Assembly: GCA_006384855.1 (NCBI GenBank)
Contig: VCJN01002132.1
Coordinates: forward strand, 18,733-82,732
Reading direction: 5' to 3'
DNA: 64,000 nt
Source: Tetraselmis striata
Taxonomy: Eukaryota > Chlorophyta > Chlorodendrophyceae > Chlorodendrales > Chlorodendraceae
The notes under the pieces: generated by a model
The model's input: the letters and a program-made list of their open reading frames with translations, nothing else
Database searches by the model: none
What the model was told of the DNA's origin: nothing
Made by a program: the position numbers and the translations under genes
Shown here: positions 3,001 through 62,673 of the stretch, in pieces
How the letters are laid out: each line of letters begins with the position of its first letter
How positions within the stretch are numbered: the stretch's first letter is position 1

Positions 3001-4340
3001 CGTAAGCCCGCAGCCACACCACCGCCGGCGCGCATCCCCGAGTCACCCGCGGCACCGTCCGAGGCAGCTTCACATCAGCACCTATCTTCGCCCGTTGGTC
3101 CGCACTTCACGGTGATGGCTCCGCATGCGCGCCTGCGCGCAGCGGTGTATGTGGGTCGCACCGCCGCCAACTCCACAAGACTCAAGACATGAAGACGGAG
3201 GCCGTGCTCATTCTCGCGTGGGCTTCATGCAGCTTTATTGAAGTTGCTTGTAACGTTGTACTGCGCGGTAGTCTCTTGTTGCTTACGCTTTTGTAATCCA
3301 AACAGTACCAGCATTACCGACCGTAAGTACTGTAACTCAAAGATCTTGTGGGCGTGCCCGTACGCGGTGCGTGCGCGCCGCACATCTTCCTGTGGTAACG
3401 AAGGTAACTGGTACTGCGGTAAATACTGCTACTCGTACCCGCTAGGGTGCCCCGGAAACTCAGCATAAAGTACAGAGTAGCTTTTGACGCAATCTATGAA
3501 GACAATAAGGTCAGTTTCAGACCATATCGCGACTCTGCAAATAAACATAAGCCCACTCGTACCCGGATGCCCCACAAGCTCATTCCGAATGAATGACCTG
3601 GTTCAGGCCCCTCCCCCCGTTCGTTTAGAATGATCTAATATTTCACGTACTAGGACCCACTATGTAGGTCATGGTGACTTGTGGCATGCCTCCCTCTGCC
3701 TATGGTAAGCCACTGGCATGCAGAGGGGGTGGGATGAGAAAGTTGAGCAATCAGGTGTTGAGTGTGCCCCGGCAACCCAGCAGAGGGCACCTGGCGGTTT
3801 CGGGGCTTGATGCCCATGCGGCTTTGCTTGCAGTGCTGATTTGGGATACTAACTCTATTGAGAGGCGTCCCGGCAAGGCATCAGCGGCCGTGCGGTGCGG
3901 TGCGGTGCGATGGCGGTTCCATCATCATTCCATGTAATGTATCATTGATTTCGCAGCAATTTCAGCGCGCAACGCACATAGCCGCTTGCTGCCGCCGAGC
4001 TATTTCCCGCCAGCCCTTTTCACATGGCCGACGGCATACCTACAAATTGTTGGCGTTACTCCCACTCCACACTCTACTCGCATGTCAGGGCGTCATCACA
4101 CATGAAGGTGTCGCGCAATGGGAGCCTTCGTCGATGTGAAGCGATCATTTGCATGTGCCTTCACTGATATGCACCCACTATCCCACTATGCTATGCCCGC
4201 GGTACCACAAAGCCCGCGCTACTGCAATAAGGCACACAACAAATAACACGGCTGTGCATCCGCACTCTTACTCACTTGTTGGCATTGCGGCCGGGCCCCG
4301 CAGCATAGCAAGAAACTAACAATGTATGAAGAAACTTGAA
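1..4340. other. Gene-free stretch, repeat-rich
   Basis: No protein family is recognisable on either strand. The longest open frame (1904-2785, minus, 293 codons) has no domain, no biased codon pattern and no splice context, so it is not called. The stretch holds one copy of a dispersed repeat (1487-1640) and many GTAC-containing words such as CCCGTAC between about 2640 and 3570. A segment near 3022-3075 (ending CCGAGGCAGCTTCA-like) resembles 33438-33480, so it belongs to another dispersed repeat. Confidence 0.6.
1487..1640 (-). repeat. Dispersed repeat family R1, copy 1
   Basis: Minus-strand copy of a family with the core GATCGCCTTTTGCAGC (here slightly diverged) followed by a GCTCATGTAAC-like end. 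It also shares the string AGAGGGTGCGGAATGAGCAC with the copy at 62486-62640. Other copies lie at 18385-18455, 47535-47700, 47701-47850 and 55605-55697. No coding potential or terminal inverted repeat was seen, so the class is unknown. Confidence 0.7.
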
Positions 4341-4506
4341 AGTTATTGAATCAGCGATGCGTCGATTTTTCAGAAAATTTCAAAAGAACGGGTTCTATGT
4401 CACTGACCTACAATTCCATGAATTGCATTGCCAGCTTTGAAGTAGTCGCTACGAACAGCGAGCGTTTGCATTGCCAGCGCTTTGAAGTACCAGAGTTTTT
4501 TTTCCA

Positions 4507-5331
4507 TTACCAGCAGTGAGTAGCGAGTACCAGTACCAGTACCAGCAGCGAGTACCAGTACCAGCAGCTTTTAGGGCCGCTTTTAGGCGGCTTGCTGTGT
4601 TGATTTTCTAATTCTGGGGAACTGTCCTTTTTGTAATTCACACCAGTACCAGCAGCGAGCGTTCGCAGTGCCAGCGCTCTGAAGTACCCGAGTTTTTTTT
4701 CCTGGCGGATAAACGCCAGGAAGTCGCGCCGGTGTTTATTTGAGGCGTCGTAGGCCGCCACGCCCGCTTCAAGGAGGCGAAGGTCCTCCTCACCAGGGGG
4801 CTGCGCCGCGCTTGCCGCTCTCTTAATCGACGCGAGCGCCTCGCAGAGAGCCGCGTGGGCCACCGCATCGTAGAAGCCAAAGCAGTACAGAGAGCGGTAC
4901 TGATCCAAAGTGGCCCAGTGCCGACGCGCGATGAGCTGGCGGTGCGTCTCGTCAGATGAGATGTCGTACAGTTGGGGAATCGGAGAGAGGCCGGGACTGG
5001 GCTGGACGGAAAAGCCGGGGCCAATTAAATGAGCCCACTCCTCCCAGACTAAGGAAGGGGCAGCGGCACTAGGGCCACCGCGCTGGGGCTGGGGCACGGA
5101 AACCTGCTCTGCGCGAGCCGGTGCGTCGTGCTGGGAGCTCGCCGCGGCAGCGCTACTAGCGGGCGCGCGGGGCTCGGTAGGAGTAGAACCACTAGGCCGC
5201 TGAAGGTCACTTCGTAGGGCTTCCAGAAGCTCCGTAAGCCCCGCGAAACCGGCCTCCAGCGCGGCGATGCGGTCTTCGGCTAGGCCACTAGGGGCGTCAC
5301 CGGAGTTGTCAGGCATACTGAGCCCTGACAA
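4507..5331 (-). CDS. Gag-like ORF of the inverted-terminus element
   Basis: A 274-codon open frame. Residues 18-45 form a short heptad-rich helix (AALEAGFAGLTELLEALRSD), followed by an Ala/Ser/Pro-rich linker to about residue 95. A helical region follows with the string YRSLYCFGFYDAVAHAALCE around residues 145-165, then a basic segment with HRRDFLAF. The order coiled-coil, linker, CFG-containing helical domain, basic segment parallels ORF1 of the YR element at 16729-17608 (LWMLCFGAHMAALFVALDEL). That parallel is the basis for the gag-like call; no zinc knuckle is present. The last 40 residues run through CCAGTA-repeat DNA and may not be native. The start is the first ATG (MSGLSMPDNSG); an internal MPDNSG start would match the MPDGEE start of the other ORF1. 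Confidence 0.55.
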   Translation of the reverse strand: MSGLSMPDNSGDAPSGLAEDRIAALEAGFAGLTELLEALRSDLQRPSGSTPTEPRAPASSAAAASSQHDAPARAEQVSVPQPQRGGPSAAAPSLVWEEWAHLIGPGFSVQPSPGLSPIPQLYDISSDETHRQLIARRHWATLDQYRSLYCFGFYDAVAHAALCEALASIKRAASAAQPPGEEDLRLLEAGVAAYDASNKHRRDFLAFIRQEKKLGYFRALALRTLAAGTGVNYKKDSSPELENQHSKPPKSGPKSCWYWYSLLVLVLVLATHCW

Positions 5332-5751
5332 TGCCGTGCGCAGGGCGTCGTGCTAGCGCAGGCGGATAATATCGACAAGGATCGCTTCCCCTCGCGGCAC
5401 AGGTGCCGCGCGATTGCTGGTGCGTGAAGCGCAACAGCAAAAGGGATGAGCGCTATGGTCTAGACAGTTGGCTAAGTAGTAGCTGCAGGCAGGCAGGGAA
5501 ACATGTCGGGAGCTGGTGCGGTCGCGAGTCCGCTGCTCACTGTCCCATCCTGGAAGATTCTAGACAGAGCCGATGACTGGCTACTGTGCTATATTTTCCA
5601 GGTGGTAGTCGTTCGACCGCACAACTCGGTCCGTCGTCTGACTAAACTCAGTTAAGTACTTAACAACGATTACCAGCAGCGAGTAGCGAGTACCAGTACT
5701 CATAGCGTCCCATCCGTGAGATGGTAATCGAACGGCTGTGTAATTAAGGAC

Positions 5752-5785
5752 CGTGGGTGGGCGGGTGGGTGGGCGGGTGGGTGGA
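5752..5785 (+). repeat. G-rich GGGTGGGCGGGT tract
   Basis: Runs of three Gs separated by single bases, the pattern of a potential G-quadruplex on the plus strand. The same tract recurs at about 21633-21660 in the short copy of the element, so it is part of the element rather than chance. Confidence 0.7.
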
Positions 5786-6731
5786 TTATAGTACTTAGTA
5801 GTAAAAGTCAGTAGATAAGCGCTTTAGTCATGCACCTATAGGCCCGACCCGCTGCACTATACGGGTACCCGTACGGCAATAAAGCTCACCGCCGAAAAAT
5901 CGACGCTTCGCTGATAAACATCGTTGCGAGCTTTCCGGCAGTAGCATGATGTGGTGTACCACATGCACTACAAGCCATAGCGACAACCGCCCGTAATAGC
6001 GACTATTGATTCCTGTCCGAGGACGATGTTGATTCTCACGAACACGGCAGTGAGTGACGCCGTCGAAGGTAAACGATGGCTATGGCTCTGAGCAATGGCT
6101 ACGAGCTGCAGCATTGATGATACTCAGCGGCGGATTAACAACGGCCACCTTGCATTGGACAAGCGGCGCTGATGCCCACATGCCATGGATCAGTGTTCAA
6201 TATTGGAAATATATACAATGGGAGAGATCCCTAACATATACCACAAGGCGTCCAGCTCAGGCGCCTATGCGCTGCATGTGCATCCCAACAGAGGAGGCTT
6301 CTTCCTCACATCCGCCTGTTGGTCAAGGGGCAAACCGGCCCCTGTCGTAGGGATGCCCGGAGACCAAGGAGGGAAGGGAGGGGCAGGAGAGTGGGTCAGT
6401 GTGTGGTCATCCCACGTGCGGCGAGTGGCGTGGTGATGCGTGGATAAGCAGTGCCGCGGCTGCACACGTACCGTCGCCGAAGACTGCTCCCCATTCTGCG
6501 CACCGCCGGTAGAGCGGAGGATCGGCGAGAGCTCGCCATGTGTAGTGCTGTAGTAGCCCTCCTCCTGCGAGAAGGGGCACATGGCGCCGAAAATAGGATA
6601 CGTGCTATCCCCCGTTTCAACAGGAATACACGACATATCACCTCATCACGACTCCAGCAGGCAGCGGAAGCATTGCCATCCCTTTGAGTCCCCAAAAACG
6701 CTGACACACCCGCGTGCAAGCAAAGGCGTTA

Positions 6732-6937
6732 CTAAATCGCAATCTCAGGCAGCCCCACCTTGATGATCTGGGCGATGTCCACGCCCTGCTCCTGCATGAG
6801 CAGGTGGGAGTGGCCAGGCAGCACCCGCCGGCTGCACGCTGCGAGCAGCTTCTCGAGGCGCCTCGACTCCTCCTCGCTGGGCACTAGCAGGTCCGCACTG
6901 CCCGCGATCACCAGCACCGGTTGGGTGACCTGGTGGG

Positions 6938-6971
<34 letters not shown>

Positions 6972-8834
6972 GCAGCCACAGCAATCATTGAAGAGCAGCA
7001 AATTTGGCATCTGTATGGGGCCACAGGAAGCAATGTGTGTATTTGTATATAATACGATATACATGGACAATGTTCTATATGAACGCATGCAGAGAAATTA
7101 AATTACTGTGTGTGCGGCTGTCCTTCCCCCCGCGTCGGTAGATGGTGTGGGCAGCCACCCTTGCCTACCTGTGACAGCTTGGCCTCGGTGTAGGCGGCGC
7201 CCTGGCCCAGGATGTCGATCTTCCACTCGAGCGTGTCGGCAGGCAGCAGGTCCGACAGCATGCCCAGCAGCGGGAGCATGTTCACCAGCCCCTGCGCCGC
7301 AGAAATACACCCCGCCACATCAGTCGGGCCACCGTATCCGCAATGCTGGGCGGAAGTACTCAGAAACTGCATTCTAATGACACCGAATGTGCACATCCTC
7401 AGCGGGGTTCCATACGTGCAAACAACATTAATGTCACGCATCCACATCCTCATTCGCATTCACATCCACATCTGCATCCACAACCCATCCACAACACATC
7501 CACATTCGCACCCACAACCACATCACCATCCACATCCTCGTCCGCATCCGCATCCACATCCTCATCCACATCCACATCCACATCCACATCCACATCCACA
7601 TCCACACCCTCATCCTAATCCTTGTTCGCATCCACATCCGCATCAACATCCTCAGCCGCATCCACATCAACACCCACATCCACATCCACATCTACCTCCT
7701 CATTCATAGCCACATCATGGCATCAAGCATTGCACCATTCACGGGGACAATTACGGGGGATACAGGCCAGGCTCCGATGACAGCCACCCGCAGCAGCTGC
7801 CTATGATGGCCTGATTTGGGGTTTTAGGGTTTTGAAACCATTAAACCCTCATATCGCCGCACCTGCGCGAGGAACTCGGCCTGTTCAGGGGGCGCCGCCG
7901 AGAGCGGCGTGTAGAAGGACGCCATCTTGAACGGATCCCCCAGCAGCGGGACCAGCGCAAAGGGCGCCGCACTGTTTGCCACAAGCATGGAACAAATGTG
8001 CGATGAGGTGGTGAGATATGGACAGCGAGCAGGGGCCGGGAGAACCTATGGTGACTGAATCATGGTGAGGGCGATGATGGGGGCTCGCACTTGTACAGCC
8101 CAGAGGGGAGCTGGCTGAGCACCGGGCCGAAGGAGGGCCAGATGGAGCGCGGGAAGCTCGTCGCGGGGTTCACCAGCACCACGCGGTCGACCCTCTCCCT
8201 GTCAGAGCACCCGTCCACGTCAGCCCTCCCCGAGCCTGACAATCAACCAAAAACGATCACCCGAGAAGACAGGGCGCGCTCACCCCAGCTCCGCCGCCAC
8301 CGCCAGTGAGAGGATGCCGCCAAAGGACTCGCCCAGGATGTACACCGGCCTGGTGCTGTCCTCCGTCTCCCGCTGCAGGTAGTCCTGCACATGGGCCCAG
8401 GCAGGCAGGCAGGCGGGCAGGCGGGCGGGCGTGAGCCATGCCTCCCGGCGGCCGTAACACATGGTCCTGACGCCTGCTGATGCGCGTACCTCCACGTACG
8501 CCACGAGCTGCGGGAAGGGTGTCCGGTCGGTGAGCGGAATCACCAGCTTCCGTAGGTCAAAGCACTTCTGCAGGAGCGGGTACTGGCGAGCTTCGCGCAG
8601 CGTGAGGAGCAGCCGTGTCAGATGATGCGGACAGGCGAGGGAGAGGGGGGTGTCAAAATGGTGCCCGGCACTCCCGCAGCTCGGCGGTTGCCGACGGCTC
8701 GAGAGAGCGATGGGCATTTATCAAACCTGTGGCGGAGCGGTGGAGGGATGTGTGGGCGGCATGGCCTGACCTGCGCAGATACCACTGCCATCCAGGCCTG
8801 GGAGGTAGAGCATGAGGGGCAAGTGTGCGCGCTC
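6732..8834 (-). CDS. Phytyl ester synthase-type alpha/beta hydrolase, acyltransferase half missing
   Basis: Seven exons join in frame: 8834-8771, 8590-8490, 8384-8284, 8198-8091, 7971-7863, 7291-7169 and 6929-6732. The exon sum is 801 bases plus stop, or 267 residues. Family landmarks appear in order: LPLMLYLPGLDGSG, then DRTPFPQL, the nucleophile elbow GESFGG with its serine, VLVNPATSF, GSADLLVP with the likely aspartate, and PGHSHLLMQEQG with the likely histidine. Plant PES1/PES2 proteins are plastid (plastoglobule) enzymes that esterify phytol and diacylglycerol, with this hydrolase half followed by an LPLAT acyltransferase half. Here the frame runs to TAG at 6732 just after IIK. A GTGGGG donor at 6758-6753 sits exactly where homologues continue, but no LPLAT exon was found downstream before the element at 5915. 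The N-terminal start is also unresolved: the first exon follows an AG, and an upstream in-frame ATG lies at 8915. Confidence 0.8.
6939..6970 (+). repeat. Poly-G homopolymer, 32 bases
   Basis: On the sense strand of the hydrolase gene this is a C run ending about ten bases before the 3' splice site of the last exon. It may act as a polypyrimidine tract or be a sequence artefact. Confidence 0.9.
7437..7697 (+). repeat. Hexanucleotide array (CACATC)n
   Basis: About 260 bases of imperfect CACATC/CATCCA repeats, inside an intron of the minus-strand hydrolase gene (between the exons at 7291 and 7863). It reads as His-Pro repeats on plus and Met-Trp repeats on minus; neither is taken as protein. 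Confidence 0.9.
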
Positions 8835-12800: not shown

Positions 12801-13434
12801 GACTCACCCACTCTTCAGGGTGCCCTACAAGAACACACATCGCGGGCGTTACAGGACGGTAACTCAAAAAGCAAGAACATGACGACCTCACTAACATGTA
12901 TATGTTGCCGATACAACAAACTCGTGAGACCTTCCGGGGAGGTGTGGAGATCTCCTTCGCATCCCCCAACGGGGTTCGTTGTGAGTGAGTGGGATAAAAA
13001 CGATTTACGCCCCCCCGCCGAGGCGGGTACCGCGCGCGCGACGGCCGATGAGCGAGTCAACACCCAAACATACGGCCGGCCAACCCCAGTGTGCAGTCAA
13101 ACATATGTGAGGAGCGTGTATACCGGGTTTGGGCCTCACCTGCTGGGTTCCGCGCCTGGCAGAGCTGGTGACAGTGGGGTAGGTGGTGTTGTGAGATGCG
13201 AACTGAAACCGGACGCGGCGCGGCGCGGCGATGTACACGTGCGGGGCCGCGCAGAACGGAAAATCGGGGTGTCTTAAATAATGCTCGAATTTTAATATAG
13301 TTTGCTGTGTTCAAGTTGAGTCTGGTTTTGCCAAGAAGGTCGCGCAGACTGTTTTACACGACTGGTCAAGAGCCGAATATGCAGGATGGTACCCGTATAG
13401 CGAAAGCGTGGAGGGAAATCGGAGTCAGGGGGGG

Positions 13435-14978
13435 CGCTGCGTGGAACGCAGCGAAAACTGGAAGATGGCAGGCTCAGCTGTTATGGCTGCTTTTTTTATA
13501 TCTACTCGTGCTGCACCCAAAAAGGGCGCAACTAGAGATGCCTAGTTATTCCCGTATACCACTGAGCAGCACTTGTACACCCCTCCACATAAGTTTGGGG
13601 TCCTTTTTTGGCTGAATCTGAAATGAAAAATACTAGGGTACCTAAACGTAGGGCTTTAGGGCTAAAACCCGGGAATGTTTTAGGTTGTTACAAAACCTTT
13701 TGCTTGATAGGGTCTGAATTATAACCTAGTACCCCCTAAGAATAGGGTATTGCGATCTGGCGCGGGGTTCAAAGGGCATGACGCAGTGATGCACAACAAT
13801 ACATGTTCTTGGCACATATATGATGGCCCACATGCTTAGAGCATTGTATGGTGCAATGGCCGTAGATGTGTGAGGAAACATAGTAGCTCGCGGGTTGGGT
13901 GGGTTTGGGCGGGCATAGTCACGTAAGGCAGAGTGGTTGGACACACGTGCGTGTGACGATGCTAGGACCAGTGCAGTTTTGCCCACTGCAAGCGACACCC
14001 CCTTGATTTCAAACGTTTATAGCGGCTCAGGGAGTGCTCCAAAAATTCCAAAAAAAATGCGCAAAAAATCCTTGCGTCAAACGCAGGAGGTGATTTTCGG
14101 TTTCTGAGCACCTAATTTGCACGTTTTGACCACTTTCTAGCGATGAACATATAATACATCAATCACGGCATCGTTTCGCAACACTCGGCCTCAACATGGG
14201 GGCGTAGCTTTGCGCTATGTGTGTTCCCTTACTGTATACGCATTTGTGTGACAGTGTTATGAATGTAGATGCACACGGGCGGCGCAAACTTGCCACATGC
14301 TCCCTCTCTAGCCATGTCCTCGATGGTCAACAACATTGTGATGTTTTCAATATAGTATTTTTGCTAATATTCAAGCATGTAATAGCGCGCTGCTATGTGG
14401 CATTCTACTTGTGATTCGGCGCAATTGCCATGCGTGCACGTGACCCCCATTGATGCGCTCTCGCCTAAGCCAAGGAGGGCACAATAAGCCTTTCATGCGT
14501 GAGTAGGCAACAACAACACCATTTTTGGCCGAAAATCACGCCATGTAGTGGTGAAACTGTAATTTAGGGCTTGTGCAATACCCTTTGTGACCTATTCTTG
14601 GTGCCCCACACATGTTGTAGGTGTACCTTACACTAAAGATGACAGCATGTCAGTACGGCGTGGATTTGTGCGTTGGATGTACGCGTACGAAGGGATGGCG
14701 CAACTTGTTATTTTCAGTGCAAGTTTTACACGCGTTGATTTGCCATTTCTCGAGGGGCGCAGAACGACGCATGCCATGTCGCACGGTTAGGCCTAGAGCG
14801 CGCCCCCATTTTTTCCCAAGTCGACCTCGCCCTTAGTCACTTGCATGCAATTGCCCACGCCGTATTTTCTACATGACATGCGCATGTCGAACAAAAATGC
14901 AAAACCCAAACTTATGTGAAGGGTTGTAGCCGAAAAGCGGTTAGGTCAAGGGAGGAAAACCCATAAACTAGTTTAGAT
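13435..14978 (-). repeat. A2 repeat of YR element copy 1, interrupted
   Basis: About 195 bases matching A1 at 17722-17908, split at the string TTGTA by the insertion at 13578-14922. The shared hairpin-like start CGCTGCGTGGAACGCAGCG occurs in both repeats. Confidence 0.75.
13578..14922. mobile_element. Nested inverted-repeat DNA transposon with TTGTA target duplication
   Basis: The interrupted A2 repeat reads ...GCACTTGTA then the insert, then TTGTAGCCGAAAAG..., whereas the intact A1 repeat reads GCACTTGTAGCCGAAAAG without a break. The insert starts CACCCCTCCACATAAGTTTG and ends with the complement of CCCTTCACATAAGTTTGGG, giving terminal inverted repeats of about 17 bases. Only short open frames occur inside, so it is non-autonomous. 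Its first 770 bases match 62674-63440. The superfamily is unknown. Confidence 0.8.
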
Positions 14979-15058
14979 CACTTCAAGTTGAGTCAGGTTT
15001 TGCCAGTCATGAGCGAACGGAGAGAGCGGTGGATTGACGGAGAAGGGGTAGCGCCAGG

Positions 15059-16224
15059 TCATGAAGTAGGCACCGGGAAGGCCACCGCTGCGGAGTCATG
15101 TTGGACTTGGAAGTGGTGGAGTGGGGCGATGTGGCCAAAGAAGAACCATGCGCCAGGTAAAGGAAGAACGTTGGGGTCGATGCAGTCCAGCACGACGTCG
15201 GAGTTAGTAGCCCAGCCGCCATGGTAGCGAATGTGGGACAATGCATGGTACTCCGATGGCGTTGGCTGCAGACGCTGCTCCCTTGCGAAGGCTGTGTGAG
15301 GTCCAGGAAGTGCCGGCGGGAGGGGCAGCACCGACAAGACGGACGGATGTAGTCAATCAGTCCGACATTGTAGCGGCAGTCCAAGGTTTTGACTGTTCGC
15401 TCGGGGTGACCGCCCAGAAGTTTGTTTCAGCCAAGGCAACAGTAACCACGGGGACAGACTATACGTTGTCGATGAAGTGGTGCAGGAGACGTGCAATTCG
15501 GGGGTGCTCTGACACCTGAAGGAGAAGTACGCGCATGTCATCGGGTCCCCGTCGGCCAGCGCGGGCTTTCTCGCGGTACACATGCACGGTAATGTTGTAA
15601 TCGTCGACATGCACATCCCGCACTCTGCAGGAGAGGCCAGTAAGTCCTCTGGCAAAGAACATGAAGTTGACAACCGAGGCCACGAGGGCTGAGAAGTCGT
15701 GTTGGTACTATGGGGTGGGAGCAAACACAATCAGCTCGGCCTTTGTGACGAAGCGGTAAGGTACACCAGCAGGCAGAGGAACTCGCAAAGGGGCGGTTTC
15801 CAGGCGGCGCTGCCGCAGCATCAGCCCACGCCTTGCCGAAGTGAGGTGTAGGCTGTCCTTGGCGATTGGGTCGAGGTTGTGCAACTCGAAAAACGTGTTG
15901 ATCGCAGAGAGGTAGGGTTGCAGTGACTTAGCTCCAATGAGCCCTCGCTCACCAATCCAGGCTACGTACCGAACGACAGTAGCAGTGGTCGCCTCCAGCG
16001 GGCTGATGTTCTCGGAGTCATGGAAGAACTCCGCGAACTGAGACAGTTTGCCGGCGTAGCTCCCGAGTGTCTGAGCGGTGAGGGAGCTGGAGAGCAAGTC
16101 GAGTGTCCGTTTGTCCTAGCTCGTCTGACCCGAAAGCATCCTGCAGTCGTGATCGCACTGAAGCAACCCAGGGAGCGACAGCCTCGGGCTCGTCAATTAC
16201 GGAAGTGCGTCGTTTTACCGACAT
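15059..16224 (-). pseudogene. Tyrosine recombinase of YR element copy 1 (degraded)
   Basis: Integrase-like protein of the YR element, expected to join a circular DNA intermediate into the genome. The N-terminus reads MSVKRRTSVIDEPEAVAPWV. A frameshift near 16110 leads to the SAM-like helical core (SLTAQTLGSYAGKLSQF, then LQPYLSAINTFFELHNLDP). The box-I arginine region is RGLTGLSCRVRDVHVDDY around 15600-15660. The HSLR box is intact at 15285-15296, but four extra bases just after it shift the frame before HIRYHGGWATNSDVV. The residue aligned with the catalytic tyrosine is cysteine (TGC, 15182-15184), whereas copy 2 has tyrosine. Several further frame breaks are present. Confidence 0.75.
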
Positions 16225-16728
16225 AGTTTTAGAGGTGCGACTACCGTTTGCAAAGTACTCGGCAGCAGCGGTTACGTTCCCGGCGGCTGGCCGGTAGATG
16301 CTGGACGGGTTTGCAGTAGCACCAGTACGGGTTTGCGGGGCAAGGTTCAGGTAGGAGGGCCGCCCCGCGCGCCCTTCGCGCTCGTAGCGCCTGTCGCGCG
16401 CGTAACGTACACGCGCGAAACTTGGTCGTTGCGAACCAGTTGTAACACGCAGTGTAACAACCGACGGACGCAGTGATGGAATGGTACGGGAGGCGGTTGG
16501 TTGAGCCGCGCCGTGTGCAGGTGTGCGGATGGTTGAGCCGCACTCGGCTATAGCTGTAAGAAGCGCCGCACCGAGGAAGGTCTAAATGAAGTCTGTAAGG
16601 TAGGGGGGTCAAGTTCTGACACAGGGCGCTCCCGCCGTTGACAGAGTTGCAAGGGTGCGCTTTGCGACGGTCACCGAAAGGTGGCCTCGTAAAGCTCCAG
16701 CAGCTCCGACGAAAGGCGCTCCACACCG

Positions 16729-17608
16729 TCACTCGTGCTCACCTTCGCGACCACGCCCGCGTTCACCGCCACGTCCTCGTCCACGTCCGCGACCTGCAAC
16801 TGCCGCCGCCACCCGAGCAGTAGCGGTTGCTTTGGCGCTGCTGGCCACAATCGCCTCGAAGACGCGACGCTCGTAGTCCCTCATGAGGTCCCCAAAAATC
16901 GCGGAACCCAGATGCTCAGAAGCAGGCTGAAAGCGTTGAGCTCGCAACACGTCCAGAACACCTTGGTCACCGTGCACACGCTTGACCTCATTAAGCCTCC
17001 GTAGGAAGGCCAAACGAAAGCGAAACGCCTTGTCGATGGCTTCGGTGTGGTTCCGAGCTCTCGCGAGGTAGGGGGTGAAGTCATGATTTGCAGCAGGGAC
17101 GTAAGGCAGCAACTCGTCGAGAGCCACGAAAAGTGCGGCCATGTGGGCGCCGAAACACAACATCCATAAATACTCCTCCTGGGCCGGCAGACGCCGGTCA
17201 TCCTGCTTGAGGTACTCGCTCGTTCGTTGGGTCGGTGCTCAGGGGGAAGAGTCCAGGCACTCGGCTGACCGGTCGAACGGCCTCGTAACCAGACTCTGCT
17301 CTCTGCAGTAGTTTCGGCACCGCGAGGTAGTCATCCTCGTCACTCACGGATTTTGCTCCGACACGGCCGCTCTGGGCTAGCTCTAGCAAGTCGGGGCGCT
17401 CTGCGGCTCCCCCGCTGCATGTCGGTTGTCCCGCGACGCGCTGCCCGGAACCGGAACCATGTGCTCCTTCTCCATCAACAACGCGCTCACGAGCCGTCAA
17501 TTGGGCCATCGCTGTAGCAAGCTCTCGCAGTAATGTAGATTGGGCCTTCACATCTGCGTATAGCGACTCGAGAGTCGGCTCAACAACGGGTTCTTCTCCA
17601 TCTGGCAT
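16729..17608 (-). pseudogene. Gag-like ORF1 of YR element copy 1, one frameshift
   Basis: It starts MPDGEEPVVEPTLESLY with a short coiled coil (STLLRELATAMAQL), then a Gly/Ser linker. A conserved DEDDYLAVPKLL segment leads to a frameshift near 17221. The next frame continues DDRRLPAQEEYLWMLCFGAH, a helical domain (ARNHTEAIDKAFRFRLAFLR), and an RG-rich basic tail GRGRGRGRGGERGRGRE before the stop. The RG tail is likely nucleic-acid binding. The same gene, more decayed, is in copy 2. It is called gag-like by position and architecture, not by a known domain. Confidence 0.65.
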
Positions 17609-17721
17609 GGTAACGCACGGGCGTACGGATGAGAATATCACACACGGGTGGTGAGCCGGGTGTGGTCTTGAACAACCTGGGGTGACCTTGCTCGCAACAG
17701 GTTACGAGACAGTTTTAACAT

Positions 17722-17908
17722 CGCTGCGTGGAACGCAGCGAAAACTGGAAGATGACATGCTCAGCTGTTATGGCTGCTTTTATGTCTACTCGTGCTGCAC
17801 CCAAAAAGGGCGCAACGACAGATGCCTAGTTCCCGTACCACTGAGCAGCACTTGTAGCCGAAAAGCGGTTAGGTCAAGGGAGGAAACCCCATAAACTAGT
17901 TTAGATCA
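17722..17908 (-). repeat. A1 repeat of YR element copy 1
   Basis: Uninterrupted 187-base version of the A repeat. It contains the motif GGAAACCCCATAAAC, which also ends the A repeats at 14953-14967, 30440-30457 and 41687-41703 and is reversed at 38944 and 41032. Confidence 0.75.
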
Positions 17909-20836: not shown

Positions 20837-21418
20837 AGTGCTTCCTCTAGCAAGCGCACCGCCAGTGCCGTAAAGTATGCACGTGCTGCGGCTTATACCA
20901 TCTATCTGTTGTGTACTACTATATACCGCGACCGCTCCCCTGACCACAGGCAGCATTTCCACCCCACCGGCCGGTGCCCTCTGCCATGTCTTCACAAAGT
21001 AGTTATATAGATTGTGGTGGATCTGTGTGAGCGCCCCAAGAAGGAAGCACAGAGCACCACAAACGCCGTGCTAGACGTGAGGCCGGTGGTCTTTATAACA
21101 CAGGGTACTCTGGCCGGCGTGGCGCGCCTCACAATAATCACGGCATTGCGTTGGTAAACATTGCCTCCCAGGACACGAGGCTCCCGCTATTGAGCAGGTG
21201 CCCGACCGGCAGTTGCTGTGTTCGTTTGGCTGCCGGTTGCTCTCCTCACCTGTGCGTGGGAACTATTGCGAGCAGCTGTGTGCGCTTTTATGGCTTGGGC
21301 CACTGTTTGCGCGCAGCACAGCCCTCAATATCGCCATCGGCGGCAGGTACAGGAGACTAACAAGGGCTCTAACTCCCGAGCCATGATATATATGAGTATG
21401 AAGTAACTTCACAGTTGA

Positions 21419-21790
21419 ATCAGCGATGCGTCGATTTTTCAGAAAATTTTAAAAGAACGGGTTCTAGCGACTAGCGACTATATCACTGGCCTACAGTTCC
21501 ATGAATTGCATTGCCAGCGCTTTGAAGTACCAGAGTTTTTCTTTCCATTACCAGCAGCGAGTAGCGAGTACCAGTACTCATAGCCTCCCAACTGTGAGAT
21601 CGTAATCGGACGGCTGTGTAATTAAGGACCGTGGGCGGGTGGGTGGGCGGGTGGGTGGATTATAGTACTTAGTAGCACATTCCAGTAGATAAGCGCTTTA
21701 GTCATGCACCTATAGGCCCGATCCGCTGCACTATACGGGCACCCGCACGGCAATAAAGCTCACCGCCGAAAAATCGACGCTTCGCTGGAT
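21419..21790 (-). mobile_element. Short (MITE-like) copy of the inverted-terminus element
   Basis: Bounded by TCAGCGATGCGTCGATTTTTC and its near complement. The left 130 and right 235 bases match the outer parts of 4350-5915 with about 90 percent identity by eye, and the ORF is lost. It carries the same GGGTGGGCGGGT tract. Confidence 0.75.
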
Positions 21791-25552: not shown

Positions 25553-26735
25553 ATGCCAGACCCTAAACCACCGCCAGGCGAGCAGTGGTCCTACTGCGAC
25601 CGGCGCTACTGGGATACACGATATCAGCGAGCTCTGGGCTCATCCGCCGCGCCCGCTGCCCGCTCTGCGTCCTCGTCCGGTGAGGAGGATAGCGCCGTGT
25701 TCGACTGGCTGTGCGATGCGACGTCACTCGCGGCACTGGCCCGCCGCTCCTGGGCGGGTCGCGACCCGGTGGTGCTGGATATGGGGTGCGGAAACAGCGA
25801 GCTGCCCGAGGCGCTGGCGAGGGGCGACCGCTCGGACGTCGGCGGATGGCAGCGGGCGGGGTTCGTGCTGGGCTCGGACTACAGCAGCAGTGGCGTGCTC
25901 CAGCTCATGGCGAGCCGCGCCGCGGCGGGCGGCCTGGGGGGCTATATAGACTACATGATAGACGATGTGCGCGCGCTTCCGCTACGAAGCGCTACCGTGG
26001 ATGTTGTCATCGATAAGGGTTGTCTTGACTCCGTGCTTCAGGATGCCGATCAGGTGATGGCGTGGCCAACAGGATGTCAATGTATGTAACATGGGTGGTG
26101 ACGGATGGCATCGCTTGGCGCCCTGTGTGCAAGCAGCTATTATGCTATGTCAGACTAGTTGTAGCACCTGCCTATAAAGGGAAAAGGGGGGGGCACTCTG
26201 CATGTAGCTCTTTACATGACGGCATGACGTGTCTGAGATGCCATGTGTGTGCCCTGCAGATAAGACTGAGCATGCGGTGGCAGCGGCATACATCTCGGGA
26301 TGCAGGGCCGTTACGTACGAAACCTGGCGTCCCACTTTGGAACCCCTACCAGCTCAATGTTGAGTCGCGCACTTGCTGCCTAGGCCTGACAGTAAAACAA
26401 GCGTGTGTAAGTTGTTCACTCCGCTAGCCATTGCGCTGAGCCATTTGCCTGCTTTACTCACAGTGGAAGAGGCCACAGCAAATGCCAACAGCGTCGTGAG
26501 AGAAGTATCCCGAGTGCTCGCCCCTGGAGGTGTTTTCATAGTGGTCTCCTACGAGCCGCCCGCTGGGAGGCGCAGCGTGCTGGAGGCCGATGACGCTACC
26601 TGGCACTTGGAGGTGGCTGGGGAGGAGGACGAGATGGGCAATTACATATATGTGTGTCGAAAGGTTGGCTTGGAGCTGGGCACGCTGGATGCCACGCTCA
26701 TGGGCGAAGAGGGCAGTCTCATCGAGGTAGACTAG
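25553..26735 (+). CDS. SAM-dependent methyltransferase, EEF1AKMT4/METTL13-like
   Basis: Two exons, 25553-26053 and 26472-26735, join in phase 0 (GTGATG donor; acceptor GAAGAG) to give 254 residues. It starts MPDPKPPPGEQWSYCDRRYW; the YCDRRYWDTRY segment is the usual family entry motif. SAM-binding motif I is VVLDMGCGNSELPEAL, the acidic strand end is VLGSDYS, and post I/II is VDVVIDKGCLDSVL. The second exon gives VVREVSRVLAPGGVFIVVSY. This family methylates lysines of translation elongation factor 1A in animals; the substrate here is inferred. The DKGCLDS string, where relatives have DKGTLDS, fits the subfamily well. An upstream in-frame ATG at 25496 is less likely because the family starts near the YW motif. 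A nearer AG at 26463 would break the frame. Confidence 0.8.
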
Positions 26736-30095: not shown

Positions 30096-30460
30096 ATCAT
30101 CCACTCCTGAGCGCCTAGCTTTATCCATACGTTCCGCACTGCGGTCCTGCCGTCAACGGAAATGCTTACGCACGCCGCCAGTGACGCCAGGAGGTACATA
30201 GTGGTGCTGCCTGGTGTGGGCGGCGGGTGCTGCTGGTGGTGGGATAAGCTGGAGGGATATCGGATAATGGAAGGCAATGAATGGGCGGATGAAATGATGG
30301 TGGCTGTCCTATTAAGTAGCTCCCCGGCCAGGCCAGGCGCAACGCTCGCGGGCGATAAGGCAGCCCGGAGGGTACCGGTAAAACCCGTTTGAAACCCGAA
30401 ACATATTGCACGGGTCGCACTAGGACAGTTGACTAGTTCTTGAAACCCCATAAACAGAGC
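29290..30460 (-). mobile_element. Truncated retroelement: A repeat plus degraded gag-like ORF
   Basis: On minus it begins with CTGTTTATGGGGTTTC (30457-30441) and continues with blocks shared with the A repeat of the element at 38935: CTGTCCTAGTGCGACCC, CGCCCGCGAG and CCGGGGAGCTACTTA. It then enters a coding-like region with frame breaks near 29880, 29640 and 29382. Protein strings are STGQLNEAIEAHAPDYHPLL, AGTRLDRGLLRDC, WQELEGVGWSADMAKSVGF, LAQFFGKKKLGHKADRPN and HVETIEALKALATK before TGA at 29290. No recombinase or second repeat follows, so only the 5' part is present. Confidence 0.6.
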
Positions 30461-38468: not shown

Positions 38469-38715
38469 TTTGTGATCCCGAGGAACGGTCAGCAGGTCAC
38501 GAGGAACGGCGAGCGGCAAGGTGCGGCGGGCTACGGTCCTCGAGCTTCAAATACCTGCCTTGACCACTGTCGATGGAGTGCTGCTGCTGCTGTGTGGCGC
38601 CGCCAGCCAACAACCACAAACTCGCCGACGATATCTACCTTGGAAACGCGCCGATAGTTCGTACGCCACAGTGCAGGCGCGCAGGCAGACGAGGCCGGCG
38701 GAGCCCCCCCCGCAA

Positions 38716-38742: not shown

Positions 38743-38934
38743 GGGTGTCCTTGACAGTAAGAATCCTGTCTGTGTGGGTGTGCAGGGCATATTCTAAATA
38801 GGGATTGATCAAGGCGTAGCGTTAGGTCAATAGAGATGACTACGGCAGGATTCTTAGGATTATATGTCGGTCGCTGAGCAAGAGCAGGCCGGACGGACAT
38901 TCAGATATATATTGCCCTAATCCTAACTGGTTCT

Positions 38935-41384
38935 GATCTAAACGTGTTTATGGGGTTTCCTAACGGACTATAGCTGTCCTAGTGCGACCCGTACGGTCTG
39001 TAGTGGTTTCAAGCCGTTACCATCGGGGTTTGGTACGGGCTACCCCATCGCCCGCGAGCCCTGCGCTCCCGGCCGGGGAGCTACTTAGGACAGCCACCAG
39101 CAGCTCGTCTGCCATCTTCCAGCTCGCTGCCTTCGGCAGCGGCTTCGCGTACTTGTGCGCGCGAGGGTCACTGAGGCTGAACAAGTCCGCACCGAGGTTC
39201 ATCCACCCGGTAGTGAGTCGTCGTGCCGCGCACATGCCTTACAACATCAGGCAGCGACAGACAGCCCCTCGGTAGTGTGGTTTTCCCTACTCGTGCGCCC
39301 GATGTCGTTTTCCGTTTTTGCCCTGGCTTTGCAGCTGGGACGTTTTCGGATGGCGATGCGCACGGCAAGGAATTGGAGCTGGGCGGTCCCCGTTGGGGGG
39401 GGTTTAAACCTCAACACCCGAAGTCGAGTCGCAATACAGGCCTTCGGGGCTCCCGCAGTGGAGCGCCCTCTCGCAGTAGTCAACTCTTGAGGTTTAGGTG
39501 AGGTGGACGCGCTCGGCACCATGGCCGCTGCTCGTCACGGTTGTCAACGACGACGACTACGCCCACCGCAACAAATCGGCGCGGACGGAGGGGGACGTCC
39601 GTGTCGTCGGGGCGACCACTTGTTGTCCCGCAAGACACTGCAACCCAGTCCCCGTGTCCTCGCAGCAGGGCGCCGTGGCATCAACGGTCGTTACATGCTG
39701 TGGTTTTCCGGAACTACTCGCGTAATTGGCCTGTTACATGGGTGGCGCCGCTCACGCGCCGGTGTTTTGAGAGGGCTCGTTGCCCTCGCCCCAATGAAGC
39801 TTCAGCAACGTTTGTTGTGGTCGCAGTGGGAGGCGTTTGTGCGGCCCGTGCCGATGCGTCTCCGACGTCTCCTACTCCAACGTCGTCGTCACAAGGACCA
39901 CGACAACCTGCCGCTGCCCGCCGGGGGGCAGCTCCACCACCTGGCGTGCCTGGCGTCTCGTGGTGTACGTAACTACCCTTGGCCAACTCTGGGTTTGGGA
40001 CTTCGGCGGCCGTCGCTGGTGCAACAGCAGCGGCCGCCTCGTCGTCTCCCTCGCCCCGACATCATTGGCATCGTTACGGGCCGGCATAGGCTACAAGGGC
40101 CTCCACGCCGGCCAACCCGCTTCCAACGTCACGGCAACGCATTTGTGACAACACGAGCTGCCCGCCGGGGGACAGCTCCGCCACCTAACGCGACTTGTGC
40201 GTTTCGTGGCATCATCCTAAGCCGACGCTTTGTGGGTTGGTCAGCAGCCGTCGTTGGTGCAGCAACGGCGGTCGGCTCACCGCTCTCCGCGAAGAAAGAC
40301 CCACGGCGACAACTAACCGAGTCGGCGGGTCTTCTGCGACGTCGCCGACAACCGACCCCGACACACCTGAACCGGTACAGCACGACCACACAGGGTTCCA
40401 CATTTCCGCGCCCTCAGCGTTGTGCGTTTCACCCGCCGCTCTTCGCGCAAGGGGGCGAAACAACCACCGCTGGTGATGACAGCGGCAGTACATCGCTGTC
40501 ATCGCGAGTTGTTGCGTCCACCCCTCGTAACGTGCATCGCCAGTACAGGTACATGGTACGAGTTACCATCGCGTCGGGTACAGTGCACCAGTACTTCACC
40601 TGACTGTACTCGGCGCGCTCGCGCGCTCGTGCGCGCAGCTGTACTCGTCCTACTCGTGCATGTGCCGCTGCTTTGCTGGGCGCTCGTCGCCAACTTGGGC
40701 TTTGCTACCCCTGCTGCTTCTACTGGCCCGCAGTTCCGGCTCGTGCCGCACGCCACCATGGCGCGCAACCAATACTATAGGGCGCCGTCGGGAGACTGCG
40801 CCTTAATTCCGCGACACGTCCAGCCTATGTCATGCCGGCGTCAACATCTCCCGCCCGCGCCTGATGCGCCTGCGCCTCGATCGAGGTCCTCTTGGCGCGA
40901 GACCCCTCTACAACTCAAGACATCTTCCGCCTTCGTCTGGTCGGCACGCCTGCCGACTGCCCACGCTCGCAGTCGTAAACGAACCGCGTGTAAACTGGCA
41001 AAGCCAGACTCGAATGCATGATTGAAATGACGTGTTTATGGGGTTTCCTAACGGACTATAGCTGTCCTAGTGCGACCCGTACGGTCTGTAGTGGTTTCAA
41101 GCCGTTACCATCGGGGTTTGGTACGGGCTACCCCATCGCCCGCGAGCCCTGCGCTCCCGGCCGGGGAGCTACTTAGGACAGCCACCAGCAGCTCGTCTGC
41201 CATCTTCCAGCTCGCTGCCTTCGGTAGCGCCCTCCCGTTTCCCGCCTCCGCCCTGCGGGCTCCTCCTCCGACATTCCCTCCCCTTTCGCTGAACCTTCCT
41301 AGCCATAAAATGGCGCTTTTCCGTGTAAAACAGCCTCCGCACTCTTTTTTGGCAAAACTAGACTCGAATGCATGATTGAAACTA
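38935..41384 (+). mobile_element. Split-repeat YR-type element copy 3, non-autonomous, recent
   Basis: Plus-strand order: A1 (38935-39140), internal region, B1 (about 40997-41028), A2 (41030-41226), B2 (about 41350-41382). A1 and A2 start GTGTTTATGGGGTTTCC and appear identical for about 197 bases up to CTGCCTTCGG. B1 and B2 share GACTCGAATGCATGATTGAA. The ends correspond to those of the YR elements at 13307 and 41395. The internal region has no reverse transcriptase and no recombinase, so it must be mobilised in trans. Repeat identity implies a young insertion. It meets copy 2 tail-to-tail at about 41385-41407. Confidence 0.75.
39503..40603 (+). CDS. Long Arg-rich open frame in element copy 3
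   Basis: A 366-codon frame starting MDALGTMAAARHGCQRRRLR. It is Arg/Pro-rich with no known domain. The other two plus frames are also open for long stretches in the same DNA, so the openness partly reflects low stop density in GC-rich, CGA/CGT-rich sequence. One of those frames reads a more protein-like string (TLGQLWVWDFGGRRWCNSSG near 39985). The true coding frame, if any, is undecided. Confidence 0.3.
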   Translation: MDALGTMAAARHGCQRRRLRPPQQIGADGGGRPCRRGDHLLSRKTLQPSPRVLAAGRRGINGRYMLWFSGTTRVIGLLHGWRRSRAGVLRGLVALAPMKLQQRLLWSQWEAFVRPVPMRLRRLLLQRRRHKDHDNLPLPAGGQLHHLACLASRGVRNYPWPTLGLGLRRPSLVQQQRPPRRLPRPDIIGIVTGRHRLQGPPRRPTRFQRHGNAFVTTRAARRGTAPPPNATCAFRGIILSRRFVGWSAAVVGAATAVGSPLSAKKDPRRQLTESAGLLRRRRQPTPTHLNRYSTTTQGSTFPRPQRCAFHPPLFAQGGETTTAGDDSGSTSLSSRVVASTPRNVHRQYRYMVRVTIASGTVHQYFT

Positions 41385-41863
41385 TTCCTACTCACCGATC
41401 AGACGGATTTCAAAGCAGACTCTCGTTTTGCCAAAAAGGTCGCGCAGGACAAGAGCCGAAATTGCCAGGAAATAGTGGAGGGAAAACGGAGTCAGCAGGT
41501 GAGGGGAGGCGCTGCGTAGTGTAACGCAGCGAAACTGGAAGATGGCAGGCTCAGCTGTTATGGCTGCTTTTATGTTTACTCGTGCTGCACCCAAAAAGGG
41601 CGCAACGACAGGTGCCTAGTAACCCGTACCACTGAGCAGCACGCGGTAGCCGGAAAAGCGCTTTAGCGATTTATAAGGAAACTAAGGATGAAACCCCATA
41701 AACAAAGTTGGGTATCAAAGATGAGTATGGTTTTGCCAGTGATAAGCGAACGGAGATAGCGCTGGATTGACGGAGAAGGGGTAGCGCCAGGTCATGAAGG
41801 GGGCACCGGAAAGGCCACCGCTGCGGAGTCTTGTTGGACCTGGAAATGGCGGAGGGGCGCGAT

Positions 41864-42014
41864 CTAACCGAAGAAGAACCATGCGCTAGGCGAAGTAGGA
41901 AGGACGTTGGGGCCGACGTAGTCCAGAACGACGTCGGAGTTAGTGGCCCAGCCGCCTTGGTAGCGGATATGGGACAGTGAAGTGCCGATGGCGTTAGCGG
42001 CTGATGCTGCTCCC

Positions 42015-42048
<34 letters not shown>

Positions 42049-43010
42049 GGGCGGGGCAGCACCGACAAGACGAACGGCCGTAGCGAGCCAGTCTGAAATT
42101 GTGGCGGCAGTCCAAGACTTGGACTACTCGCTCGGGGTGACCACCCAGAGGTTTGTTTCGGCCAAGGCAACAGGGGCCAGGGGGGAAGACTGCACGTGGT
42201 CGATGAAGTGGTGCATTTTTCAGACGTCGACGCGCAATGCGGGGGTGCTCCGATAATGACACTGGAAGGAGCAGTACGCGGTACGCGGCGCGCGCGGTCG
42301 GGGCCGCGTCGACCGGCGCGGCCTTTCTCGCGGTAAACCTGCAGGGTAATTTGTAGTCGTCGACGACATGCACGTCCCGCACTCGGCATGACACGCGAGT
42401 AAGTCCCCTGGCAAAGAACATAAAGTTGACGACAATATTCGAGGCCATGTGGGCTCGGAAGTCGTACTGGTACTCGGGACGGGGAGCATCATACACAATC
42501 CACTCTGCACGCTCGACAAAGCTGTAAGCGACATTAGCAGACAGAGGGACTCGCAAAGGGGCAGTATCCAAGCGGCGTTGCCTGAGCATCAAGCCACGAC
42601 GAGCCGCGGTATAAGGGGCAGGTTGTCCTTCATTGGCGATCGGGTCGGGGTTGTGGAGCTCAAAGAACTTGCTTGTTGATTGATGACAGGTAGGGCTACA
42701 ACGACTTAGCCCCCATGTGCGCCTCATCACCAATCCAAGCAACGTACCGGACGACAGTAGTAGTGGTCGCCCCCATCGGGCTGATGTTCTCGGAGTCGTG
42801 GCAGAACGCCGCGAACTGAGACAGTTTGCCGGCGTAGCTCCTGAGCGTCTGCGCGGTGAGGGAGCAGGAGATTAGGTCGAGTGTGCGCTGTCCCAGCTCG
42901 TCTGAGCCGAACGCTTTTTGTAACTAAGCGAGACCGGAGTGAAGCAGCCCAAGGGGTGACAGCTTCGGGCTCGTCAATTACGTAAGTACGGCGCTTGGCC
43001 GACGGAGTAA
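41864..43010 (-). pseudogene. Tyrosine recombinase of YR element copy 2 (degraded)
   Basis: The same protein as at 15059-16224: KRRTYVIDEPEAVTPWAASL at the N-terminus, a frameshifted core, then KFFELHNPDPIANEG, the box-I region RGLTRVSCRVRDVHVVDDYK, and the C-terminal HIRYQGGWATNSDVVLDY. The tyrosine aligned with the catalytic residue is present (TAC, 41918-41920). The HSLR box is missing because the 36 bases that encode it in copy 1 are replaced by 31 Gs. Confidence 0.75.
42017..42047 (+). repeat. Poly-G homopolymer replacing recombinase sequence
   Basis: In copy 1 the sequence between TGCTCCCTT and AGGGGCAGCACCGACAAGAC is 36 bases of coding DNA; here it is 31 Gs followed by AGGGCGGGGCAGCACCGAC. 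The flanks are conserved on both sides. Confidence 0.9.
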
Positions 43011-43558: not shown

Positions 43559-44371
43559 TCACTCGTGCTCTTCTTCGCGGCCACGCCCGCGACCGCCGTC
43601 ATGCCCTCGTCCACGCCCGCGCCTTGCAGCCGCTGCCGCCACCCGAGCAGAGGCGGTAACTTTTGCGCTCATGGCAACCGTCGCTTCGAAGACGCGACGC
43701 TCGTAGTCCTTCATCAGGTCCCCGAAAATGCTGGGCTCGCAGTACGCCCTAAACACCTTGGTCACCGTGCACACGTTTGACCTCGTTCAGCCTCCGTAGG
43801 AAGGCTAGACAATAGCGAAACGCCTTGTCGATGGCCTCGGCGTGATTCCGAGCGCGCGCGAGGTAAGATGTGAAATCTGGATTAGCAATAGGAACGTAGG
43901 GTAGCAGCTCGTCCAACGCTACGAAGAGTGAGGCCATGTAGTGGGCTCCGAAACACGATATCCAAAGATAGTTTACTCCTCCTGGGCCGGCAGACGGTGC
44001 TCAAGGGAAACATATCCGGCACTCGACTGACCGGTCGAACGGCCTCGTAACCAGACTCATTCCTCGCTGCAGTAGCTATGGCACCGCGAGATAGTCGTCC
44101 TCGTCACTCACGGATTTTGCTCCGACACGGCCGCTATGGGCTAGCGCTAGCAAGTCGGGGGGCTCTGCGGCTCCCCCGCTGCATGTCGGTTGTCCCGTGC
44201 TTACGCGCTGCCTGGAACCAGAGCCACGTACTCCGTCTCCACCAACAACACGGTCACGAGCCGTCAATTGAGCTTACGATGTTGCCAGCTCGCGTAACAA
44301 TGTAGAATGGGCATACATGTCTGCTTGTAGCGATTCGAGCTCATCGACGGGTTCTTCTCCACCTGACACTA
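43559..44371 (-). pseudogene. Gag-like ORF1 of YR element copy 2 (degraded)
   Basis: Pieces in different frames match ORF1 of copy 1: GGEEPVDELESLQADMYAHS, GRVGAKSVSDEDDYLAVP, FVALDELLPYVPIANPDF, NHAEAIDKAFRYCLAFLR and the RG tail GRGRGHDGGRGRGREEE. At least three frame breaks separate them. Confidence 0.65.
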
Positions 44372-44705
44372 TGACGCACGGACGTATGGATGGGAATTTC
44401 ACACACGGGTGCTGATGAGCCGGGTGTGGTTTTGAACAAGCTAGGGTGACCTTGCTCGCAACAGGTTTCGAGACAATTAATCGCCGCGTGTGACGCAACG
44501 AAACTGGAAGATGGCATGTTCAGCTGTATAGTTGAAACGCATTTTGCGCGTAGTGACAGCGGATCGGGTGGTGTTTGAAATATCCGGGAGCGGGATCATG
44601 CTCGATGCGGACGTTCTAAAACAACCGGCAACGCGTAGCCTACACGTCGCCGATTTTTGGTCGGGGGCGTTGCCGATTTTGATTACTGCTTTTATTCCGG
44701 CTAGA

Positions 44706-50073: not shown

Positions 50074-50107
<34 letters not shown>

Positions 50108-52002: not shown

Positions 52003-52034
<32 letters not shown>

Positions 52035-62640: not shown

Positions 62641-62673
62641 CCGTTATTTTGGGCAGTCGTGACCCAACGAACT

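What the first reader, a model, noticed from the sequence alone, without database searches (positions are those of the whole stretch)
13307..17908. YR elements with split direct repeats, gag-like ORF and recombinase but no reverse transcriptase
Seen: in two independent copies (13307-17908, 41395-44529) the order on the coding strand is A1, ORF1, tyrosine recombinase, B1, A2, B2, with nothing between ORF1 and the recombinase that resembles RT or RNase H. Known: A1-B1A2B2 is the layout of PAT/Ngaro retrotransposons, and TOC1 of Chlamydomonas has split repeats and depends on a partner. Inference: this is a stable RT-less lineage that keeps its own recombinase, either borrowing RT in trans or moving DNA-to-DNA like a Crypton.
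Basis: partly seen in the sequence, partly recalled or inferred. Interest (0 to 1): 0.78.

Follow-up and report, generated by a model that had tools for sequence, protein, structure and literature searches.

The report
Jumping gene without its copying enzyme
A retrotransposon-like mobile element seems to have kept two genes, a coat-like protein and a DNA-joining recombinase, under natural selection while lacking the copying enzyme it should need, so it probably borrows that enzyme from a relative.

Summary
The layout is real. Two minus-strand copies (c1 17908-13310; c2 44527-41410) read A1, ORF1, tyrosine recombinase (YR), B1, A2, B2. No unassigned stretch is long enough for a reverse transcriptase (RT), and Pfam finds none.

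Both copies are dead, but diverged under purifying selection: dN/dS 0.24 (ORF1) and 0.25 (YR), against 0.84-2.35 in shifted frames. The spacer where RT would sit aligns through, shows no significant codon phase, and is about as diverged as the ORFs. c1's A1 and A2 differ at 3.4%; four-fold sites between copies at 29.7%. So the RT-less form seems as old as the split and live for most of that time.

Best reading: a trans-dependent two-gene PAT/Ngaro-type lineage using borrowed RT. Concerted A1/A2 evolution supports this over DNA-only movement, though the inner end of A does not show it. No host genome was held, so the partner is inferred.

The parts
17722..17908 (-). c1 repeat A1 (5' end of element, TGATCTAAAC...; inner end is a hairpin CGCTGCGT-TCC-ACGCAGCG)
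   Evidence: hairpin z -3.5
16729..17608 (-). c1 ORF1, gag-like by position only; ATG to a stop conserved in c2; Arg-Gly-rich C-terminus; one frameshift near 17235
   Evidence: dN/dS 0.24; no significant Pfam family
16225..16728 (-). c1 spacer where RT would be expected; no significant codon phase; 16600-16230 less diverged than four-fold sites
15059..16224 (-). c1 tyrosine recombinase, broken (frameshifts near 16112 and 15250, three in-frame stops, Cys at the catalytic Tyr position)
   Evidence: PF02899 E 1.9e-5, 2.6e-6 read through; PF00589 E 0.18 only; non-significant Cre alignment; dN/dS 0.25
14982..15005 (-). c1 repeat B1 (TGGCAAAACCTGACTCAACTTGAA)
14927..14980 (-). c1 repeat A2, outer part
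13578..14926 (.). insertion splitting c1 A2: TA duplication, about 22-nt inverted ends; Tc1/mariner-like MITE by structure
   Evidence: no Pfam match; related sequence at 62673-63442
13435..13577 (-). c1 repeat A2, inner part, ending in the hairpin
13310..13434 (-). c1 3' terminal segment with B2 (last 24 nt equal B1 at 23 of 24)
44482..44527 (-). c2 A1 stub (outer part missing)
43559..44369 (-). c2 ORF1, broken, approximate limits; GTG at the start position
41792..43000 (-). c2 tyrosine recombinase, broken, approximate limits; Tyr present (LDYVGP); H..R region lost at a poly-G tract (42017-42056)
   Evidence: PF02899 E 0.0031, below its cut-off
41715..41738 (-). c2 repeat B1
41510..41714 (-). 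c2 repeat A2
41410..41509 (-). c2 3' segment with B2
38934..39141 (+). e3 repeat A1 (third element, not in the finding)
39521..40600 (+). e3 possible reading frame (Arg-rich, no family found); no match to RT, ORF1 or YR
40996..41027 (+). e3 repeat B1
41028..41229 (+). e3 repeat A2, 194/195 identical to A1 over the compared part; 6 nt shorter at its outer start
41230..41381 (+). e3 3' segment with B2 (last 32 nt equal B1 at 94%)
30298..30456 (-). s4: lone A-like repeat of the e3 subfamily; no B motif nearby

Best explanation
c1 and c2 are dead copies of an RT-less lineage of split-direct-repeat tyrosine-recombinase retroelements (PAT/Ngaro type) that encodes only ORF1, presumably its own Gag, and a YR. 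Shown: the A1-ORF1-YR-B1A2B2 layout, no detectable RT, a shared RT-less junction, purifying selection on both ORFs between the copies, and A1/A2 more alike within an element than between elements over most of A. Inferred: the RNA is packaged with the element's own ORF1 product; an RT from an RT-bearing relative elsewhere in the genome copies it; the lost ends are restored from the internal B1A2 junction to give a circle; and the element's own YR inserts the circle. e3 shares only the tips with c1/c2 and looks like a more reduced dependant of the same machinery. The RNA and circle steps follow the model proposed for DIRS-1, which its reviewers call not fully proven (PMC5633606, PMC3266345, passages read).
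For: Layout and size. No RT/RNase H in c1 six frames or c2 coding-strand frames, nor in the other 35 kb scanned. dN/dS ORF1 0.24 (CI 0.16-0.36, 257 codons), YR 0.25 (CI 0.18-0.34, 371 codons); pooled shifted frames 0.97-1.86. Codon-phase asymmetry in all five coding pieces (p 0.0058 to 1.2e-5), not significant in the two spacer pieces (p 0.23, 0.55). Spacer divergence 14.1% and 21.8%; ORF1 15% and YR 19% raw, from the counts. c1 A1/A2 differ at 6 of 174 against 90 of 303 four-fold sites between copies, so most divergence predates c1's insertion if A1 and A2 were alike then. e3 A1/A2 194/195, but e3/s4 121/143 and e3/c1 122/160; informative ungapped sites in c1 A1, c1 A2 and c2 A2 split 18 (c1 A1 = c1 A2), 7 (c1 A1 = c2 A2) and 2 (c1 A2 = c2 A2). 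Shared tips between otherwise unrelated e3 and c1/c2.
Against: No RT-bearing partner was seen: no host genome is held, and viral and prokaryotic collections gave no relative. Only two coding copies, both broken. In the inner 46-47 nt of A, c1 A2 is as close to c2 A2 (45/46) as to c1 A1 (45/47), and c2 A2 is closer to c1 A2 (45/46) than to c2 A1 (42/46), so homogenisation is not seen there. The 18 sites include changes private to c2, and 30 gapped columns were dropped. Read in the YR frame the spacer gives dN/dS 0.56 (CI 0.34-0.92), so a coding extension is not excluded. The proteins could have evolved partly in RT-bearing genomes, with the RT-less junction spread by recombination. ORF1 has no demonstrated Gag homology, and the YR catalytic-domain match is below Pfam's cut-off.
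Confidence: 0.64

Rival explanations
1. Plain deletion derivatives: a recently RT-deleted, functionless element made a few dead copies, and both ORFs are passengers.
For: Both copies are broken, no RT is found, and internally deleted retroelements are common (general knowledge).
Against: dN/dS of 0.24-0.25 in both ORFs between copies that share the RT-less junction, and c1 inserted late relative to the c1-c2 divergence.
Confidence: 0.17
2. DNA-to-DNA movement: the YR excises and reinserts a DNA circle as proposed for Cryptons, and ORF1 and the split repeats are ancestral relics or serve another role.
For: The YR is retained under selection while no RT was found. The inner end of A does not evolve in concert.
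Against: Simple excision and reinsertion gives no reason for A1 and A2 to stay alike, yet over most of A they do. Cryptons have no long direct repeats (PMC3212892, passages read). B1A2B2 is kept in all three elements, and e3, with the same tips but no YR match, has near-identical A1/A2.
Confidence: 0.09
3. The RT-less junction spread recently among RT-bearing relatives by template switching, so the selection signal reflects RT-bearing ancestors.
For: Spacer 16600-16230 is less diverged (14.1%) than four-fold sites (29.7%, p 1e-6), which a recent conversion tract would also give.
Against: The neighbouring spacer piece 16733-16601 is 21.8% diverged, no closer than the ORFs, and leader (12.8%) and tail (7.7%) are also below four-fold sites, which fits constraint on non-coding signals.
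Confidence: 0.09

Closest known systems
PAT-group elements (Pat1, Toc3, Kangaroo) of the DIRS order
   Same: Split direct repeats A1...B1A2B2, gag-like ORF plus YR; YR in the same direction as ORF1 and no zinc-finger family match in ORF1, as described for algal Toc3 (PMC4157794, passages read).
   Different: No RT, RNase H or methyltransferase found; B repeat only 24 nt (c1) or 32 nt (e3).
Ngaro and VIPER retrotransposons
   Same: A1-[ORFs]-B1A2B2 (PMC8547959; PMC6681497) and no methyltransferase (PMC3266345; PMC4157794); passages read.
   Different: Those carry RT/RNase H. Cafeteria Ngaro type 2b lost ORF1, a different loss.
SIRE, the short VIPER derivative of Trypanosoma cruzi
   Same: Like e3, it keeps terminal repeats of a split-repeat YR element without its genes (PMC6681497, passages read).
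   Different: SIRE corresponds to A2B2; e3 keeps A1, a 1.85-kb unrelated interior and B1A2B2.
TOC1 of Chlamydomonas
   Same: Recalled, not read: split repeats and no RT, so e3 resembles it most.
   Different: Three searches naming it in the paper library returned nothing; no sequence was compared.
Crypton
   Same: YR-encoding element without RT.
   Different: Cryptons lack long direct repeats and have short direct repeats or none at the ends (PMC3212892, passages read); here there is ORF1 and B1A2B2.

Membership tests
PAT/Ngaro-type split-repeat YR element | A1-ORFs-B1A2B2 layout | tested here: met
   three elements, though c2 A1 is a stub and e3 has no recognised gene
PAT/Ngaro-type split-repeat YR element | tyrosine recombinase N-terminal SAM-like domain | tested here: met
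   PF02899 above cut-off in c1; below cut-off in c2
PAT/Ngaro-type split-repeat YR element | catalytic R-H-R-Y | tested here: inconclusive
   PF00589 E 0.18, below cut-off; H..R, W and Tyr positions line up with Cre at E 0.5, behind an unrelated hit at 0.38; Tyr is Cys in c1, Tyr in c2; first Arg assigned by eye; a shorter query found no recombinase
PAT/Ngaro-type split-repeat YR element | reverse transcriptase and RNase H | tested here: not met
   no room in the internal region
PAT/Ngaro-type split-repeat YR element | gag-like ORF1 | tested here: inconclusive
   position and Arg-Gly tail only; no significant Pfam match; model pLDDT 53
PAT (DIRS group) | methyltransferase domain | tested here: not met
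   none in c1 or c2; some Pat1-like elements also lack it (PMC4157794)
PAT (DIRS group) | placement in RT or YR tree | not testable with these tools
   no reference YR retroelement sequences held; no RT
Crypton | no long direct repeats | tested here: not met
   A is about 190 nt, direct and split
Crypton | moves as DNA circle without RNA | not testable with these tools
   needs reads or an assay

The most novel reading that the evidence does not exclude
A self-sustaining lineage that does without reverse transcriptase altogether: ORF1 and YR, with the conserved spacer, replicate or copy a DNA circle, and the split repeats are kept alike by recombination in that circle. This would be a third way for YR elements to move, between retrotransposon and Crypton.
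Probability: 0.07. Interest if true: 0.85.

Novelty: new variant of a known kind. Interest (0 to 1): 0.52.

Why it matters
Non-autonomous retroelements often lose their genes. Here two genes appear to have stayed under selection without the polymerase, which suggests that their products preferentially help the molecule that encodes them. That would make YR retroelements a place to test cis-preference of Gag and recombinase separately from RT, and to ask how split repeats are regenerated when the polymerase comes from outside. No paper describing an RT-less split-repeat element that keeps gag and YR turned up in the searches. I saw listings only, cut at 20 of 35 and 15 of 51, and read passages of nine papers. 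The library omits most subscription journals, where the main reviews of these elements lie.

Tried and rejected
RT elsewhere in the window: six-frame Pfam of 35 kb outside the elements (E up to 0.01) and a motif search of the 64 kb (two candidates, neither RT-like by eye) found none. Not scanned by Pfam: 1-8300, 33000-33900, 49600-51500 except one ORF, 56500-64000. c2 was scanned only in its three coding-strand frames; besides the recombinase domain these gave two low-complexity matches below cut-off (PRIMA1).

Relatives: YR in viral and prokaryotic collections and ORF1 in the viral one: 4, 45 and 16 stretches matched a pattern, none was confirmed, as may be expected for a eukaryotic element. 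No tRNA or Rfam match; the host was not identified.

Structure: AlphaFold models of YR (pLDDT 33) and ORF1 (pLDDT 53) were too poor to search with; no fold search was run. phmmer of the YR piece without its C-terminal part matched four non-recombinase chains at E 0.64-2.1; PHROGs gave one ORF1 match at E 0.16.

Spacer: RNA folding z -2.5 in c1 but -0.7 in c2, so no claim. Its period-3 power is reached by 92 of 2000 shuffles and its dN/dS in the YR frame is 0.56 (CI 0.34-0.92), so weak coding signal remains possible. The hairpin at the A end folds better than its shuffles in c1 and in c2 A2 (z -3.1 to -4.0), weaker in c2 A1 and e3 (-1.5 to -2.2); its role is unknown.

e3 coding: its longest stop-free frame is reached by 12 of 1000 shuffles. 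Period-3 is reached by 1 of 2000 for that frame, but by 124 of 2000 for the whole interior and 1211 of 2000 for the second frame. An internal 143-nt repeat may inflate the first figure, so coding stays open. e3's interior shows no convincing similarity to c1 or c2 (best tblastx E 0.069, short and antisense).

Full report
What is there. Two related elements lie on the minus strand. c1 runs from 17908 to 13310 and c2 from 44527 to 41410; they align over most of their length at 80-85%. On the coding strand each reads A1, ORF1, YR, B1, A2, B2. c1's A2 is split by a 1,349-nt insertion (13578-14926) with a TA duplication and inverted ends; related sequence lies at 62673-63442. c2 has lost the outer part of A1. 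B1 and B2 are short: 24 nt in c1, 23 of 24 matching.

A third element. e3 (38934-41381, plus strand) was not in the finding. It has A1, a 1.85-kb interior, B1, A2 and B2; A1 and A2 match at 194 of 195 nt over the compared part, and A2 is 6 nt shorter at its outer start. Six-frame Pfam of e3 gave only two sub-threshold matches, on the other strand, and its interior shows no convincing similarity to c1 or c2. It shares with c1 and c2 only the A start, the A end with its hairpin, and the B end. e3 and c2 lie tail to tail, 28 nt apart. A lone A-like repeat of the e3 subfamily (s4) is at 30298-30456.

No reverse transcriptase. Six-frame Pfam of c1 and e3 and three frames of c2 gave no RT or RNase H. 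The c1 interior is fully assigned: leader, ORF1 (17608-16729), spacer (16728-16225), YR (16224-15059), then B1. The size threshold used for RT/RH ORFs in a related group is over 600 aa (PMC6681497, passage read), far more than the 504-nt spacer could hold.

The recombinase. The N-terminal SAM-like domain passes Pfam's cut-off in c1 (PF02899). The catalytic domain is below cut-off (PF00589 E 0.18). phmmer lines it up with Cre through the His-x-x-Arg, Trp and Tyr positions, but at E 0.5 and behind an unrelated protein at 0.38. c1 has Cys at the Tyr position; c2 has Tyr but lost the His-x-x-Arg region at a poly-G tract. Both copies are dead.

Selection. Between c1 and c2, dN/dS is 0.24 for ORF1 (257 codons, CI 0.16-0.36) and 0.25 for YR (371 codons, CI 0.18-0.34). 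The same segments in shifted frames give pooled values of 0.97-1.86, single pieces 0.84-2.35. Differences concentrate at third positions in all five coding pieces and show no significant phase in the two spacer pieces. The spacer read in the YR frame gives 0.56 (CI 0.34-0.92), so part of it could extend the YR. Caveats: frames were chosen with help from tblastx, and codons with gaps or stops were dropped.

Age of the RT-less form. The spacer aligns through in both copies, at 21.8% and 14.1% divergence, against 15% and 19% raw for ORF1 and YR (counts). The RT-less junction is therefore about as old as the split. Four-fold sites differ at 90 of 303, while c1's A1 and A2 differ at 6 of 174. If A1 and A2 were alike at insertion, most of the divergence arose while the lineages were still active. 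c2's stub gives 42 of 46, but from few sites and in a part of A that may not be homogenised.

Mechanism. In e3, A1 and A2 are far closer to each other than to s4 (121/143) or c1 (122/160). In c1 versus c2, 18 ungapped sites join c1 A1 with c1 A2, against 7 joining c1 A1 with c2 A2 and 2 joining c1 A2 with c2 A2; the 18 include changes private to c2. If A1 and A2 had evolved apart since before the split, the last class should lead. The inner 46-47 nt run the other way: c1 A2 and c2 A2 match at 45/46, c2 A1 and A2 at 42/46. Restoring only the lost outer ends from an internal junction would give both patterns, but so few sites do not prove it. The proposed DIRS-1 model has truncated transcripts, restoration at an internal region and a circle inserted by YR (PMC5633606, PMC3266345, passages read). 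I infer that RT is supplied in trans, while ORF1 and YR act on their own RNA or circle; that would explain why they stayed under selection.

An open point. The spacer from 16600 to 16230 is less diverged than four-fold sites (p 1e-6) without significant codon phase. It may hold a non-coding signal, or it may be a conversion tract. RNA folding does not decide.

Limits. No host genome is held, the host is unknown, and the collections searched were viral and prokaryotic. Two coding copies are few.

Noticed in passing
13578-14926 and 62673-63442: Repeat with TA duplication and about 22-nt inverted ends inside c1 A2, with related sequence at 62.7 kb (79% over 504 nt): Tc1/mariner-like MITE by structure.
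   Followed up: partly
49872-52400, plus strand: AMPK beta-subunit gene in pieces: AMPK1_CBM domain (E 1.2e-28) and, downstream in another ORF, AMPKBI (E 9e-23), suggesting an intron.
   Followed up: no
25772-26050, plus strand: Weak methyltransferase-like match (Methyltransf_25, E 3e-4, below cut-off).
   Followed up: no
39521-40600, plus strand: e3 holds a 360-codon Arg-rich frame with period-3 signal and no family found.
   Followed up: partly
16230-16600: Spacer less diverged than four-fold sites in the ORFs around it.
   Followed up: partly
6935-6970, 36653-36681, 38704-38742, 42017-42056, 50075-50106, 52006-52033, 60992-61018: Seven 27-40-nt runs of G or C; one lies where the c2 recombinase lost its His-x-x-Arg region.
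   Followed up: no
1486-1738, 47441-47681, 55608-55690, 62498-62623: A dispersed repeat family of about 70-215 nt, not identified.
   Followed up: no
4324-5913 and 21396-21787: Repeat pieces shared at 82-97% between the two places, not identified.
   Followed up: no
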